Positions 47,250-52,029 of a DNA stretch of 64,000 bases are shown here, in pieces. This DNA is from Pseudomonas sp. B21-040 (GTDB taxonomy: Bacteria > Pseudomonadota > Gammaproteobacteria > Pseudomonadales > Pseudomonadaceae), in contig NZ_CP087176.1 in the NCBI RefSeq assembly GCF_024748695.1, forward strand, positions 3,279,501-3,343,500, in the 5' to 3' direction. How positions within the stretch are numbered: the stretch's first letter is position 1; every line of letters starts with the position of its first letter. Below the pieces are notes generated by a model that saw only the letters and a list, made by a program, of their open reading frames with translations, did not search any database and was not told the DNA's origin. The position numbers and the translations under genes were made by a program.

Positions 47250-48806
47250 CTAGGGGCCGGTCGTTTCAGTTTTCGTCGTGGACGACTCGGGAATAAACGC
47301 CACGCTCTGTTCCTCTCGGGCGTGGAACATCCGCTCGCCGTTGGTGGGCGTGGTGGTGATGACCTGGTGGTCGGCACTCAGGTAGTTCAGCGGCAGCGCA
47401 TCACCCTTGTGGTACTGCGCGACCACAATGGTGCGCTGCGGATTCCAGTGTTGGCCGCTGGCGTTATCCAGCCAGGCCATCAGTGTCGCGGTGTTGCCGG
47501 AGCGAGGGAAGTCCTCGGTTTCCTGCACGTAATAGAACGGTGCGCCACCGGTTTGCAGGTACATCGGCACTTTGTTGTCGACGTCGATCATCACCATGCG
47601 CCAGTGCTCCAACGGCGCCCGCTTGCTGGCTTCAAACTTGACCGTCTCACCGAAATCCACCACGCCGCCACCGCTGTTAGTCCAGGGGTACAGCACGCCG
47701 AGCACAGTCATCAATACGACTGCGCTCACCCCGAAACCGATCTTCAACCCGCGACTGCCAAACGCACTGTCGGCGTTGCGTTCGGCCATGCGCCGGGTGA
47801 TCCACCAAGCCCCCAGTAACTGGGCGAAGGGCACGAGGGGCAATACGTAGTAGCTGCGTCGACTTCCGCTGGCGGTGAAAAACAGCATCAGCAGCCCCAG
47901 CCCCCAGATCAGCCAACGTGTATTGGGTTCGACACTGCGCCAGTTGCGTGCAGAGACCCACAGCGCCAACAACCAGAACGGCGCCCATGGCAAGGTGTAG
48001 ACGGGAAGGTAAAGCAGGTAGGTGTAAATCGGCCCGATGTTATCGAACGGCTGGAAGAACCGGACGACATTTTCGCGCAACACCAAGCCCAAGCCACTTT
48101 CGCCATAGGTCGGTGTGCCATACACATGCGACAACATGAACGGTGTCATGTAGAAAACGCCGGCAACCGACAGGGCTGCACACAGCCGCCAATTGAGGTG
48201 GCGTTTCCAGCGACCCTCCTGCAACAGATGAGGCAATAACAACAACCCTGGCAGGATGAAGCCGATCAAACCTTTGAACAGTGAGGTCAAGGACAGCAGC
48301 AGGCAAAACACCAGGTAGCGGCTGAACCGTGTGTCGTCGGGCCCCCGCCAGTACCACCACACCGCCGCCAGTACGCCGCACACCGTGAGAATGTCAGCCG
48401 TGGCAACCCGTGCCCAGAAGATAAAATAGAAGGTGGTCGCCAGCATCCAGCCGGCAATCAAACCGGTACCTTTGCGATACAGCCGTTCGCCGATCAGGTA
48501 CACCAGCCACACGCTCAGCCACGCCGCAATCACTGACGAGAGGCGCAACGACCAAGGGTCCAGGCCACCCGTCAACCAGGCGGAGGCGGTGATCAACCAA
48601 TAGGAGGGCAGGGGTTTGTCGTAGTAGGCCCCGCCCTTGAGGTAGGGATCAATATAGTCACCGCTTTGCAGCATCTGTAAGGCGATGTTGGCCCAGCGTG
48701 TTTCCGCGCCCCACAACTCCCGGGTGCCCAGCCCCAGCAACAGCATCAACGCGGTTGCACCCAGCAGGAGCGTTAACCGGCCCCTGTCACTGGCCCAGAA
48801 CTTCAT
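47250..48806 (-). CDS. GT39-type membrane glycosyltransferase (ArnT-like)
   Basis: Polytopic protein of 518 residues with about eleven helices. The periplasmic catalytic loop after helix 1 reads LGTRELWGAETRWANIALQML, which keeps the acidic residue (GAETR) seen in ArnT (PDETR). YYDKPLPSYWLITASAWLTGG follows, again parallel to ArnT (FEKPAAGYWMI). It probably transfers a sugar from a polyprenyl carrier onto lipid A or another envelope acceptor. It overlaps the second arnT by 4 bases and is the downstream member of that pair. Confidence 0.85.
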   Translation of the reverse strand: MKFWASDRGRLTLLLGATALMLLLGLGTRELWGAETRWANIALQMLQSGDYIDPYLKGGAYYDKPLPSYWLITASAWLTGGLDPWSLRLSSVIAAWLSVWLVYLIGERLYRKGTGLIAGWMLATTFYFIFWARVATADILTVCGVLAAVWWYWRGPDDTRFSRYLVFCLLLSLTSLFKGLIGFILPGLLLLPHLLQEGRWKRHLNWRLCAALSVAGVFYMTPFMLSHVYGTPTYGESGLGLVLRENVVRFFQPFDNIGPIYTYLLYLPVYTLPWAPFWLLALWVSARNWRSVEPNTRWLIWGLGLLMLFFTASGSRRSYYVLPLVPFAQLLGAWWITRRMAERNADSAFGSRGLKIGFGVSAVVLMTVLGVLYPWTNSGGGVVDFGETVKFEASKRAPLEHWRMVMIDVDNKVPMYLQTGGAPFYYVQETEDFPRSGNTATLMAWLDNASGQHWNPQRTIVVAQYHKGDALPLNYLSADHQVITTTPTNGERMFHAREEQSVAFIPESSTTKTETTGP

Positions 48807-50566
48807 GACGGGTTTCCAGTCGGTGCTGGTGGCGAAACTTTGTCAGGGCTGGTTTGCGGAAAAATCAGGATCTGCAGATTGCCACGCTGATAGCGTTTGC
48901 CATCGATAGGCAACCGCTCGACTTCTTCGATTTCCGCGACACTGTTGACCCGCATCACCACACCGACCGAGCCTTTTTTGCGCGCCTCGGTCATCCACTC
49001 ATCGACGTTGTCCAGGGGCACTTTGCGCGAAGCCATGGCCGGGTCGCCGAGACCGTACTTCAGCTCGCCGATGGTATTGAACAGATCGACTTGCGGGCGC
49101 TTCAAACGCCAGGACAACGCGGAGGCCGCACCGAGATCGTTACTGAGCAAAGAACTGGTTTTGCCCAATGCATCGAGGTGTTCGGCAATGAACTGGTCCG
49201 GCATCTTGCTGTTGACGACCTGTGCCGGCATGGCGGCTGGCAACAACGCAATCAATATCCAGATGCCGATCGCCGGCATCGCCCAAAAAGTCAGTGGACG
49301 CAGGGCTTGTAATGAATTGCTGATGATCCAGCCGAGCAACACGATGAACGCCAGCGACAGGCTGAACATCTCGGTGTTTTCGTAGATCTCTTTGGAAACC
49401 TGAAGATAGAGCAGGGCGATCAGGGCAACAGTGCCCACGGTGATGTTGATCGCCGCATTGATGCGAAGCGACCGCGCTCGCCCTTGGTTCAGGAGCTCCA
49501 TGACCGTGTGCCCCATCAGCAGGGCCAGCGGCAATAGGCACGGCATGATGTAGGTCGGCAGTTTGCCGCTGCTCAAACTGAAGAAAGCCAGTGGCAACAG
49601 CAGCCAAAGCAGCAGGAAACCGACGACAGGCTGGCGTTTGTGCTTCCAGGCGTTGATGAACGTGGTCGGTAGCAACGCCGCCCATGGCAGGCTCGACACC
49701 ACCAGCAAGGGCAGATAGAACCACCATGGCCGCGCATGCTGTGCATCATCGGCGGCGAACCGGCGCACGTGTTCGTTCCAGAAGAAAAAGCGCCAGAAGT
49801 CCGGCTCCCGGTGGTGAATGGCGAGCACCCAAGGCAAGCACACCACCACCGCCACCAGCACGGCCAACGAACCGTAACGCACCAGTTCACCCATGCGCCG
49901 TTGCCAAAGCATGTAGGGCAGGGCGATCAACACGGGTAACAACCAGGCCAGAAAGCCCTTGGTCATGAAGCCCATGCCACAGGCGAACCCCAGCATCGCC
50001 CAGGCACCCACCTTGCTTCGTGGGGTTTGACCGTCGAGGGCAAACCACAGCGCAACCAGGCTCAGGTTGACCCAGAAGGTGAATTGCGGATCGAGGTTGG
50101 CGTAACCGGCCTGGCCGGCAATCAGCCCGAAACTCATGTACAGCAACGCGCAGGCCGCGCTTTTGCGCGGGTCGCTCCAAAGCCTGCGGGCGATCAGGTA
50201 CGTCAACCAGACACTTAGCCCGGTACTGAGCGCCGAAGCAATGCGCACACCAAACAGGTTGTCACCAAAAACCGCCTGGCCGATGGCAATCATCCAGTAC
50301 CCGGCGATGGGCTTTTCGAAGTAGCGAATGCCCATGAAGTGCGGCGCGACCCAGTTGCCGCTCAGGAGCATTTCCTGGCTGATCTGGGCATAACGGGGCT
50401 CGTCGGGGATCCACAGGCCGTGGGTCATCAAGGGCAGCAGGTAGAACACCACAAAGGCGAGAACCAGACCGGGCACAATCCAGCGATTGGCGGCGTTTGA
50501 AGTGCCGGTATAACGGTAGGACTGTGCCCCGACCGGGTGTCGCAACGGATTGTTTTGGGACGTCAT
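48803..50566 (-). CDS. arnT: Second ArnT-like aminoarabinosyltransferase
   Basis: A 587-residue paralogue of the ArnT at 35204-36850. The catalytic loop is GLWIPDEPRYAQISQEMLLS followed by APHFMGIRYFEKPIAGYWMI. It follows the first copy throughout (DPRKSAACALLYMSF; GFMTKGFLAWLLPVL; NDLGAASALSWRLKRPQVDLFNTIGELKYGL). It has an extra hydrophilic N-terminus of about 35 residues. The ATG at 50566 was chosen over an upstream frame that lacks homology. Having two ArnT-type enzymes in one strain suggests that they differ in acceptor site or in regulation (inference). Confidence 0.92.
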   Translation of the reverse strand: MTSQNNPLRHPVGAQSYRYTGTSNAANRWIVPGLVLAFVVFYLLPLMTHGLWIPDEPRYAQISQEMLLSGNWVAPHFMGIRYFEKPIAGYWMIAIGQAVFGDNLFGVRIASALSTGLSVWLTYLIARRLWSDPRKSAACALLYMSFGLIAGQAGYANLDPQFTFWVNLSLVALWFALDGQTPRSKVGAWAMLGFACGMGFMTKGFLAWLLPVLIALPYMLWQRRMGELVRYGSLAVLVAVVVCLPWVLAIHHREPDFWRFFFWNEHVRRFAADDAQHARPWWFYLPLLVVSSLPWAALLPTTFINAWKHKRQPVVGFLLLWLLLPLAFFSLSSGKLPTYIMPCLLPLALLMGHTVMELLNQGRARSLRINAAINITVGTVALIALLYLQVSKEIYENTEMFSLSLAFIVLLGWIISNSLQALRPLTFWAMPAIGIWILIALLPAAMPAQVVNSKMPDQFIAEHLDALGKTSSLLSNDLGAASALSWRLKRPQVDLFNTIGELKYGLGDPAMASRKVPLDNVDEWMTEARKKGSVGVVMRVNSVAEIEEVERLPIDGKRYQRGNLQILIFPQTSPDKVSPPAPTGNPS

Positions 50567-50875
50567 GACTCGACCTGACTTAGAGACGTTACCGAATTCA
50601 GTGCAGGGCTCGGCGCAATCCTGCGAAAGCACAGCACTGGAATAAATTGCCCGAAGGCACAAATACAGCCGGAGTAAGTGATTTCTTTGATCTGGAACTA
50701 TCAGCCTCCTTGGTTGAATGGTTCCTGACAAAATCGAAAATAAAGGTGAACTAGCGTTCAGCTGTCCATTGAGAAAGATTAACTTTCACTGTCGGGCACT
50801 TAACTAAGGAAGGTTCCATGGGTGCACTTAAAATGCACCGTTCACCTTCCATTGTTACTGCCGGCTGGCGAGTCG
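50567..50875. other. Gap between the Ais-like gene and the second arnT, with nested inverted repeat
   Basis: No gene is seen in these 309 bases. At 50808-50850 an outer 7-bp stem (GGAAGGT / ACCTTCC) encloses an inner 6-bp stem (GGTGCA 50821-50826 / TGCACC 50834-50839). It lies 25 bases beyond the stop of the Ais-like gene and could protect or end that message, though no U-tract follows. The rest must carry the promoter of the arnT copy. Confidence 0.55.
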
Positions 50876-51550: not shown

Positions 51551-51867
51551 GTTCTTACCCTTGACTGTTCGCAACACCGGACATAAGGCTGCTTTGGCCG
51601 CAGAAAAAACTGACGAATTTCAAATCAAGTTTTACTAAACCTGGATGATGAGCGGTACGTTAAAGGCTGAGGCGTGTGAACGTGGTGAAACGGATGTGAA
51701 AATTTTGCGCAGATGATCGAAGGGCAAATGCTTCTAGTGTGATGATCTACAACATTATTACAAACTAACTAGTTGCGCGGAGTATTTGAAAGTCAATATC
51801 AAGTACGGTGTGAAACTTGTTACAGAAGTGCCGCAGTTGCTTTGCCGAGGAAGAAAAACGTCATGCG

Positions 51868-52029
51868 ATGTTCCAGCCTTTCATACCCGACGATGAAAGT
51901 CGGGGAGCGGGCTTGGGATCAGGGCTTTCGCAGGTGCAGCGGATCTGTAGCCGACAGCAATGGCAAGTGACGCTCGGCAGCCTTGAGCCCAACGGCTGCT
52001 GTTTCACCGTTGAGCTTAAGCCGGCGTAA
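51868..52029 (+). pseudogene. C-terminal stub of a sensor histidine kinase
   Basis: The last about 53 codons of a histidine-kinase ATPase domain remain: FQPFIPDD (the F-box), GAGLGSGLSQVQRICSRQQ (G2 box, compare GxGLGLSIVQRI) and WQVTLGSLEPNGCCFTVEL. No dimerisation domain, membrane segment or response regulator is found upstream; the frame is open only from 51814 and has a TGA before it. It is best explained as a relic of a deleted two-component system next to the LPS-modification genes. The 240 bases before it show nothing else. Confidence 0.7.

What the first reader, a model, noticed from the sequence alone, without database searches (positions are those of the whole stretch)
47250..52029. 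Second LPS-modification block: Ais-like phosphatase, second ArnT and a GT39 partner, beside a broken sensor kinase
A complete arn operon with its own arnT lies at 31.5-41.9 kb. About 6 kb away is a second ArnT-like enzyme coupled by a 4-base overlap to another ArnT-like glycosyltransferase, with an Ais/PmrG-like phosphatase upstream. In enteric bacteria Ais removes a core heptose phosphate and is encoded next to arn. The block therefore looks like a separate lipid A/core remodelling unit with its own acceptor preference. The kinase stub suggests that its native regulator was lost.
Basis: partly seen in the sequence, partly recalled or inferred. Interest (0 to 1): 0.75.

Follow-up and report, generated by a model that had tools for sequence, protein, structure and literature searches.

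The report
Second LPS-remodelling operon, local sensor lost
A Pseudomonas carries, beside its usual operon for adding a positively charged sugar to its outer coat, a second conserved gene set that probably remodels the coat under a metal-sensing regulator; some relatives still keep a dedicated sensor next to it, which this strain has lost.

Summary
On the minus strand lie an Ais/PmrG-type phosphatase (50876-51577), a second genuine ArnT (48803-50566; 65% identical to the arn-operon ArnT) and an ArnT-like glycosyltransferase, GTp (47250-48806), overlapping ArnT2 by 4 bases. A plus-strand stub (51850-52026) is the last 59 residues of a sensor kinase. In 16 of 80 related loci that kinase is intact and is a ColS paralogue (63% identical to this genome's ColS) without a response regulator beside it; I call it ColS2. 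Its sensor loop has diverged (48%), but its partner-contact helix is 90% identical to ColS, so ColR is its likely partner. The element TTCACN6TTCAC stands upstream of the first gene in 66 of 66 ArnT2-bearing loci; 4 of 7 footprinted P. putida ColR sites contain it, and this window keeps it (51685-51700). ArnT2 forms one clade apart from ArnT1. GTp was found only in genomes with an ArnT (53 of 53; a control glycosyltransferase 24 of 46). Best reading: a metal-responsive, ColR-controlled branch of the Ara4N system. The local sensor was deleted here, but the regulator and its site remain. GTp's donor and acceptor, and any core specificity, are inferred.

The parts
50876..51577 (-). PmrG/Ais-like periplasmic histidine phosphatase (ATG at 51549 is the likelier start)
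   Evidence: NCBIfam NF052369 246 bits > 170; RHAER and THSGC motifs aligned to E. coli Ais
48803..50566 (-). [quoted passage not shown]
   Evidence: NF009784 766.8 > 567; 65% to ArnT1; D55,E56,R58,E84,K85,D158,K203,R270,Y345 equivalents all as in E. coli ArnT
47250..48806 (-). GTp, ArnT-like (PMT/GT-C) glycosyltransferase, 4-base overlap with ArnT2
51685..51700 (-). TTCACATCCGTTTCAC, predicted ColR-type box upstream of PmrG
   Evidence: the only perfect TTCACN6TTCAC in the window; one of 20 in the 6.75 Mb genome
51850..52026 (+). stub of ColS2: last 59 residues of the sensor kinase, inside an open frame 51814-52029
   Evidence: tblastn with 16 intact ColS2 proteins, E down to 6e-28
35204..36850 (-). 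ArnT1 of the canonical arn operon (context)
   Evidence: NF009784 777.8 > 567
34465..41889 (-). arnBCADTEF operon, presumed source of the donor Und-P-L-Ara4N (context)
   Evidence: each gene matched to its E. coli K-12 counterpart
42084..42099 (-). TTCATGTTCCTTTCAC, one-mismatch relative of the box upstream of arnB
   Evidence: TTCAT form in 27 of 32 arnB upstreams
31500..33116 (-). a further PMT-family protein at the end of the arn-ugd run (context)
   Evidence: PMT_2 39.3 bits; NF009784 23.6 bits

Best explanation
The block is a conserved, ColR-controlled side branch of the L-Ara4N system. (1) The arn operon makes and flips Und-P-L-Ara4N (established for its E. coli counterpart). (2) PmrG removes a phosphate from the inner core, as Ais/PmrG does in enterics (family knowledge, inferred here). 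(3) ArnT2 transfers L-Ara4N from that shared carrier to LPS (shown: family membership and all listed catalytic residues; inferred: activity). (4) GTp uses the same donor on another acceptor (inferred from strict co-occurrence with ArnT, from keeping the carrier-phosphate residues, and from losing Asp55, one of the residues that orient the lipid A phosphate). (5) Transcription is switched by ColR at the TTCACN6TTCAC element, which adds excess Zn/Fe as an input distinct from the usual inducers of arn (inferred). (6) In many relatives a duplicated sensor, ColS2, sits divergently beside the operon and probably feeds ColR with a retuned signal. In this genome ColS2 was deleted down to its tail, so the operon would now answer to ColS alone.
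For: Kinase identity: intact kinases of 434-483 aa in 16 of 80 loci, with no regulator gene between kinase and PmrG in the four loci read ORF by ORF. Best own-genome match is the kinase at 5313683-5314960, 63%, in a locus with ColR, a PAP2 protein and a methyltransferase as in P. putida colRS (PMC2689224 passages). H-, N-, G1- and G2-boxes in 16 of 16; metal-site ExxE (E126/E129) in 15 of 16; partner-contact helix 90% against sensor loop 48% identity to ColS. Box: 57 of 57 PmrG upstreams (shuffles 0.35%) and 9 of 9 ArnT2-first operons; 4 of 4 further genomes; 4 of 7 footprinted ColR sites against 1 of 14000 shuffles; also upstream of this genome's colR. ArnT2 clade of 56 rows, SH-aLRT 99.6. 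GTp: 53 of 53 in ArnT genomes, base rate 98 of 199, control 24 of 46. Residues: R58 and E56 in 78 of 79; D84, K85, D158, K203, R270, Y345 in 79 of 79. Precedent: ColR controls an ArnT homologue (PP0033) with an ArnC homologue in P. putida (PMC4074579 passages).
Against: No binding, expression or lipid data. Against the full published 16-base ColR consensus the window site has 2 mismatches, both in the T-track, and several relatives' best sites have 3. The box is kept in 41 of 57 PmrG operons that have no ColS2, so ColS2 is not needed for it. L022, L023, L028, L032 and L055 have a regulator-kinase pair of another, heavy-metal-like type upstream of PmrG instead (family scan on L022 only). Co-occurrence counts are not corrected for shared ancestry. 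GTp is absent at E 1e-120 from five genomes that keep ColS2 beside ArnT2 (G111, G162, G046, G135, G178) and is without the other block genes in 10 of 80 loci, so it is not bound to ArnT2. PmrG is much less conserved than its partners: 41-72% over 57 loci. ColRS under excess Zn is reported to repress the arnB operon (PMC8306577 passage), which would limit the donor just when the branch is on.
Confidence: 0.57

Rival explanations
1. ArnT2 is a plain isozyme: same donor, same lipid A phosphates, different expression conditions; PmrG and GTp are passengers with unrelated roles.
For: ArnT1 and ArnT2 share every tested catalytic residue and are 65% identical; gene content around ArnT2 varies (9 of 66 lack PmrG; five genomes lack GTp).
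Against: Two or more ArnTs are kept in 66 of 199 genomes (counted), in separate clades. arnT and arnA insertion mutants of P. simiae are reported polymyxin B sensitive (PMC10516422 passages), so a second ArnT, if that strain has one (not checked), does not simply substitute there; polar effects are possible.
Confidence: 0.27
2. The box is read by another OmpR-family regulator (PmrA, ParR, CprR or the heavy-metal-like one), and ColS2 is linked only by position.
For: Five loci (L022, L023, L028, L032, L055) carry another regulator-kinase pair at the same place; the box is kept without ColS2 in 41 of 57 operons.
Against: Four of seven footprinted ColR sites hold the identical element, and it recurs upstream of colR itself in this genome; the ColS2 contact helix is that of ColS. 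Sites of the other regulators were not compared.
Confidence: 0.23
3. GTp, and perhaps the whole block, uses a different carrier-linked sugar (for example galactosamine or glucose) made by an unlinked ArnC-like enzyme.
For: ArnT relatives with such donors are known, for example in Francisella (PMC8306577 passage); GTp is only 24% identical to ArnT2 and lacks Asp55.
Against: In 199 genomes GTp was not found outside ArnT-bearing ones (53 of 53), and it is right before arnB in 5 of 80 loci.
Confidence: 0.3
4. The block is decaying: the kinase is already gone and the rest is following.
For: Kinase stub in this genome; kinase also absent from the near relatives L007, L008, L029, L059; PmrG only 60-67% identical to theirs.
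Against: Open frames, intact ArnT2 catalytic residues and an intact box in this genome; ArnT2 and GTp 90-91% identical in the nearest genome G137.
Confidence: 0.05

Closest known systems
ArnT / PmrK (NF009784; structure 5ezm/5f15 of C. metallidurans)
   Same: ArnT2 passes the equivalog cut-off and keeps the listed catalytic residues; GTp shares the fold
   Different: ArnT2 lies outside the arn operon and is a separate Pseudomonas clade; GTp fails the cut-off and lacks Asp55
Ais / PmrG, core heptose(II)-phosphate phosphatase of enterics (NF052369)
   Same: family score above cut-off; near Ara4N genes, as ais is next to arnB in E. coli
   Different: heads a run with ArnT2 and GTp instead of standing alone and divergent from arnB
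P. putida PP0035-PP0033 (ColR-controlled GtrA, ArnC and ArnT homologues)
   Same: an ArnT homologue under a ColR box, contributing to zinc tolerance (PMC4074579 and PMC2689224 passages)
   Different: that operon has its own ArnC homologue and no phosphatase among its three genes; this block has no ArnC
ColS (sensor of ColRS)
   Same: ColS2 has the same kinase core, the ExxE site in 15 of 16 and nearly the same contact helix
   Different: no regulator gene beside it, diverged sensor loop, sits beside its presumed target; only a stub here
Xanthomonas raxRH-arnT-lpxE-eptA cluster
   Same: ColRS-type pair next to an arnT-like gene (PMC8306577 passages)
   Different: complete regulator pair there; orphan sensor here

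Membership tests
ArnT (applied to ArnT2) | equivalog model score above the curated cut-off | tested here: met
   766.8 against 567
ArnT (applied to ArnT2) | residues equivalent to D55, R58, E84, K85, D158, K203, R270, Y345 | tested here: met
   all identical to E. coli ArnT (residue list from a PMC8306577 passage)
ArnT (applied to ArnT2) | transfers L-Ara4N to lipid A phosphate | not testable with these tools
   needs enzyme assay or lipid A mass spectrometry
ArnT (applied to GTp) | equivalog model score above the curated cut-off | tested here: not met
   112 against 567
ArnT (applied to GTp) | Asp55 | tested here: not met
   gap at that column in 79 of 79 rows; the residue before the kept Glu is Ala in 39 and Pro in 39, one row (L084) lacks the stretch
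ArnT (applied to GTp) | carrier-phosphate residues E84, K85, R270, Y345 | tested here: met
   K85, R270, Y345 in 79 of 79; position 84 is Asp, not Glu, in 79 of 79
PmrG/Ais phosphatase | equivalog model score above the curated cut-off | tested here: met
   246 against 170
PmrG/Ais phosphatase | removes the core heptose(II) phosphate | not testable with these tools
   needs core mass spectrometry
ColS (applied to the relatives' kinase) | full kinase core | tested here: met
   four core boxes in 16 of 16
ColS (applied to the relatives' kinase) | metal-sensing ExxE at 126-129 | tested here: met
   15 of 16; L019 reads LQRE
ColS (applied to the relatives' kinase) | encoded next to ColR | tested here: not met
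   no regulator gene between kinase and PmrG in the four loci read by ORF
ColR regulon | published core YYNASNNYTTTTTSAC | tested here: inconclusive
   2 mismatches in the window, 1 to 3 in relatives
ColR regulon | 11-bp-spaced TTCAC half-sites as in footprinted sites | tested here: met
   66 of 66 ArnT2-bearing loci; but only 4 of 7 footprinted sites have it in perfect form
ColR regulon | ColR-dependent transcription | not testable with these tools
   needs reporter or footprint

The most novel reading that the evidence does not exclude
Phosphatase and transferases act in sequence as one core-recharging unit: PmrG strips an inner-core phosphate and GTp, a second kind of L-Ara4N transferase without Asp55, puts the amino sugar on a non-phosphate core acceptor, while ArnT2 treats lipid A. 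The unit is driven by a branched two-sensor ColS/ColS2-ColR circuit in which the duplicated sensor is kept beside its own target and is repeatedly lost.
Probability: 0.17. Interest if true: 0.75.

Novelty: new variant of a known kind. Interest (0 to 1): 0.52.

Why it matters
It links three things usually treated apart: metal sensing by ColRS, Ais/PmrG core dephosphorylation and L-Ara4N transfer. It also offers a natural series of genomes (sensor intact, stub, gone; GTp present or absent) for testing how a duplicated sensor and a duplicated transferase divide their labour. It warns that one arnT deletion need not remove all L-Ara4N transfer in pseudomonads with two ArnTs, and it gives the unassigned ArnT-like protein GTp a testable donor.

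Tried and rejected
- Foreign origin: G+C of 55-61% across the block in 1-kb windows, like its surroundings, and syntenic in relatives; dropped.
- GTp as a copy of the PMT-family protein at 31500: only 23% identity over 309 residues; dropped.
- Kinase as a PmrB: NCBIfam PmrB 126.5 bits against a cut-off of 314; replaced by ColS.
- PDB sequence search for GTp and PmrG: no hits at E 0.001.
- Rooting the ArnT tree: no further genome had a match at E 1e-80 among the 56 class genomes searched, own included. E. coli ArnT sits on a branch of 5.7, so root and order of duplication are unresolved.
- First tree held one row in a wrong frame (L164); replaced. Dropped before the tree: 6 rows that were GTp, and the rows of 25 loci judged by eye close to kept ones. 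The ArnT1/ArnT2 groups tested were named after the tree had been seen.
- GTp of L045 stops early (225 aa) and was dropped from the residue counts (79 of 80 kept).
- Structure of GTp: mean pLDDT 68, too weak for pocket comparison.
- Papers: nothing on a second Pseudomonas ArnT, on PmrG in Pseudomonas, or on an orphan ColS of Pseudomonas was seen in the listings (open-licence library only; listings, not full texts).
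Full report
What is there. The window lies at 3279501-3343500 of a 6.75 Mb single-contig Pseudomonas genome. On the minus strand, in transcription order, are a PmrG/Ais-type phosphatase (50876-51577; ATG at 51549), ArnT2 (48803-50566) and GTp (47250-48806), the last two sharing ATGA. PmrG and ArnT2 pass their NCBIfam cut-offs; GTp scores 112 bits on the ArnT model, whose cut-off is 567. The canonical arnBCADTEF operon was confirmed gene by gene against E. coli K-12 and begins about 5.4 kb from the end of GTp. 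This genome has six places that match the PMT family PF02366. The block has no donor-making gene of its own.

Where else it occurs. A scan of named species genomes for GTp gave 93 relatives, of which the best 80 were kept. Classified with window proteins: PmrG-ArnT2-GTp in 57 of 80 (16 with an intact kinase; 27 with arnB inside the fetched flank), ArnT2-GTp without PmrG in 9 (one of them right before arnB), GTp right before arnB without ArnT2 in 4, and GTp without the others in 10 (one of these, L013, is a contig end with part of an ArnT). In 199 genus genomes, 98 have at least one ArnT at E 1e-130 and 66 have two or more. GTp is in 53 of 199 at E 1e-120. All 53 lie in the 98; another PMT-family protein of this genome, used as a control, gave 24 of 46. 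The hypergeometric value of 2e-21 ignores shared ancestry and should not be read as a probability.

ArnT2 is a separate lineage. In a tree of 88 rows the 56 ArnT2 rows are one side of a branch (SH-aLRT 99.6), and holding the 31 ArnT1 rows together is not rejected (p-AU 0.72). The groups were named after a first tree, the search was the quick one, and the root is unresolved.

The kinase. The plus-strand stub matches only the last 59 residues of a kinase that is whole in 16 of the 80 loci; in the four of these read ORF by ORF no regulator gene lies between kinase and PmrG. The intact protein's best relative in this genome is ColS at 5313683-5314960 (63%), whose neighbours (ColR, PAP2 protein, methyltransferase, the latter two named from their sequence and from the P. 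putida locus, not by a family scan) match the colRS locus described in PMC2689224. A ColS relative at E 1e-60 is in 195 of 199 genus genomes; a copy at 70% or more is in 17, all 17 with two ArnTs, and in 15 of the 17 it lies beside ArnT2 (positions compared by eye). Two of the 17 lie elsewhere (L183, L184). ColS2 keeps the kinase boxes in 16 of 16 and ExxE in 15 of 16 (L019 reads LQRE). It is on average 90% identical to ColS in the first contact helix, 67% in the loop and second helix, 60% in the ATPase domain and 48% in the sensor loop. That pattern suggests the same partner and a changed signal; it is an inference. In the stub stretch the 16 ColS2 proteins are on average 84% identical to each other and the stub is 62% identical to them (that count includes about ten leading stub residues that do not belong to the kinase, and single tblastn matches give 63-73%).

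The box. Upstream of PmrG, TTCACN6TTCAC is perfect in 57 of 57 loci (shuffles 0.35%) and the T-rich run before it is conserved. The nine ArnT2-first operons all have it, as do four further genomes and the four GTp-arnB loci upstream of GTp. These loci are related, so the counts are not independent. In the window it is at 51685-51700. In the whole genome the pattern occurs 20 times (reversed control 10); besides this block it begins 68 bp upstream of a second PmrG-like gene and lies about 120 bp upstream of colR. I did not find an evident regulon role for the other places, and about half of the 20 are expected by chance. Four of the seven footprinted ColR sites contain the element, against 1 of 14000 shuffles (sequences from PMC2689224); three do not. 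Against the longer published ColR consensus the window site has two mismatches. arnB upstreams carry a one-mismatch form (TTCAT) in 27 of 32. Five loci (L022, L023, L028, L032, L055) carry another regulator-kinase pair upstream of PmrG (heavy-metal-like by family scan of L022, below the family cut-offs).

Reading. ColRS answers excess Zn, Fe(III), Mn and Cd, and in P. putida controls an ArnT homologue (PMC4074579 passages). A ColR-controlled PmrG-ArnT2-GTp operon, in some species with its own duplicated ColS beside it, is therefore a coherent unit: a metal-responsive branch that borrows the arn donor. In this strain the accessory sensor is gone and the rest is intact. What is shown is gene content, family membership, conserved residues, a conserved promoter element and the kinase's origin. 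What is inferred is ColR binding, signal, donor and acceptor of GTp, and the core phosphate step.

Limits. No expression or lipid data were available. Named loci were chosen by GTp similarity. Papers were read as passages (PMC4074579, PMC8306577, PMC10516422, PMC5377068, PMC9952513) or as outline, passages and one section (PMC2689224); all others were seen as search listings only. The roles of Ais/PmrG and of the arn genes, and the contact role of the first kinase helix, are general knowledge recalled, not from a call. After the first check the confidence was lowered slightly (0.58 to 0.57) because one search showed the other regulator pair in five loci, not three.

Noticed in passing
L113 (own genome 795000-801500), 386-2035: A second PmrG-like phosphatase (38% to the block's) with a PAP2 protein behind it also carries TTCACN6TTCAC, beginning 68 bp upstream, and a PMT-family protein lies convergent.
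   Followed up: partly
31500-33116: An uncharacterised PMT-family protein closes the arn-ugd run; in L052 and L063 a 62% relative lies divergent from GTp with the box facing it.
   Followed up: partly
42230-43204: A tyrosine-recombinase (integrase-family) gene stands divergent from arnB between the two LPS units and is present at the same place in many of the fetched relatives (85-96%).
   Followed up: no
43215-46954: An ABC transporter with a solute-binding protein lies between the arn operon and the block; in L022, L023, L028 and L032 its upstream has TTGACN6TTCAC, a ColR-like site.
   Followed up: no
L022 4519-6613 (also L023, L028, L032, L055): A regulator and kinase pair of heavy-metal-like type stands co-directional upstream of PmrG, where other relatives have ColS2.
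   Followed up: partly
L045 GTp, from 10001: GTp appears truncated after 225 residues in this P. baetica genome.
   Followed up: no
L183 4020-5279 and L184 3478-4737: ColS2-type kinases (70-72%) occur away from any ArnT2 block in two genomes.
   Followed up: partly
50876-51577: PmrG diverges much faster than its operon partners (60-67% to the near relatives whose ArnT2 and GTp are 84-91% identical).
   Followed up: no
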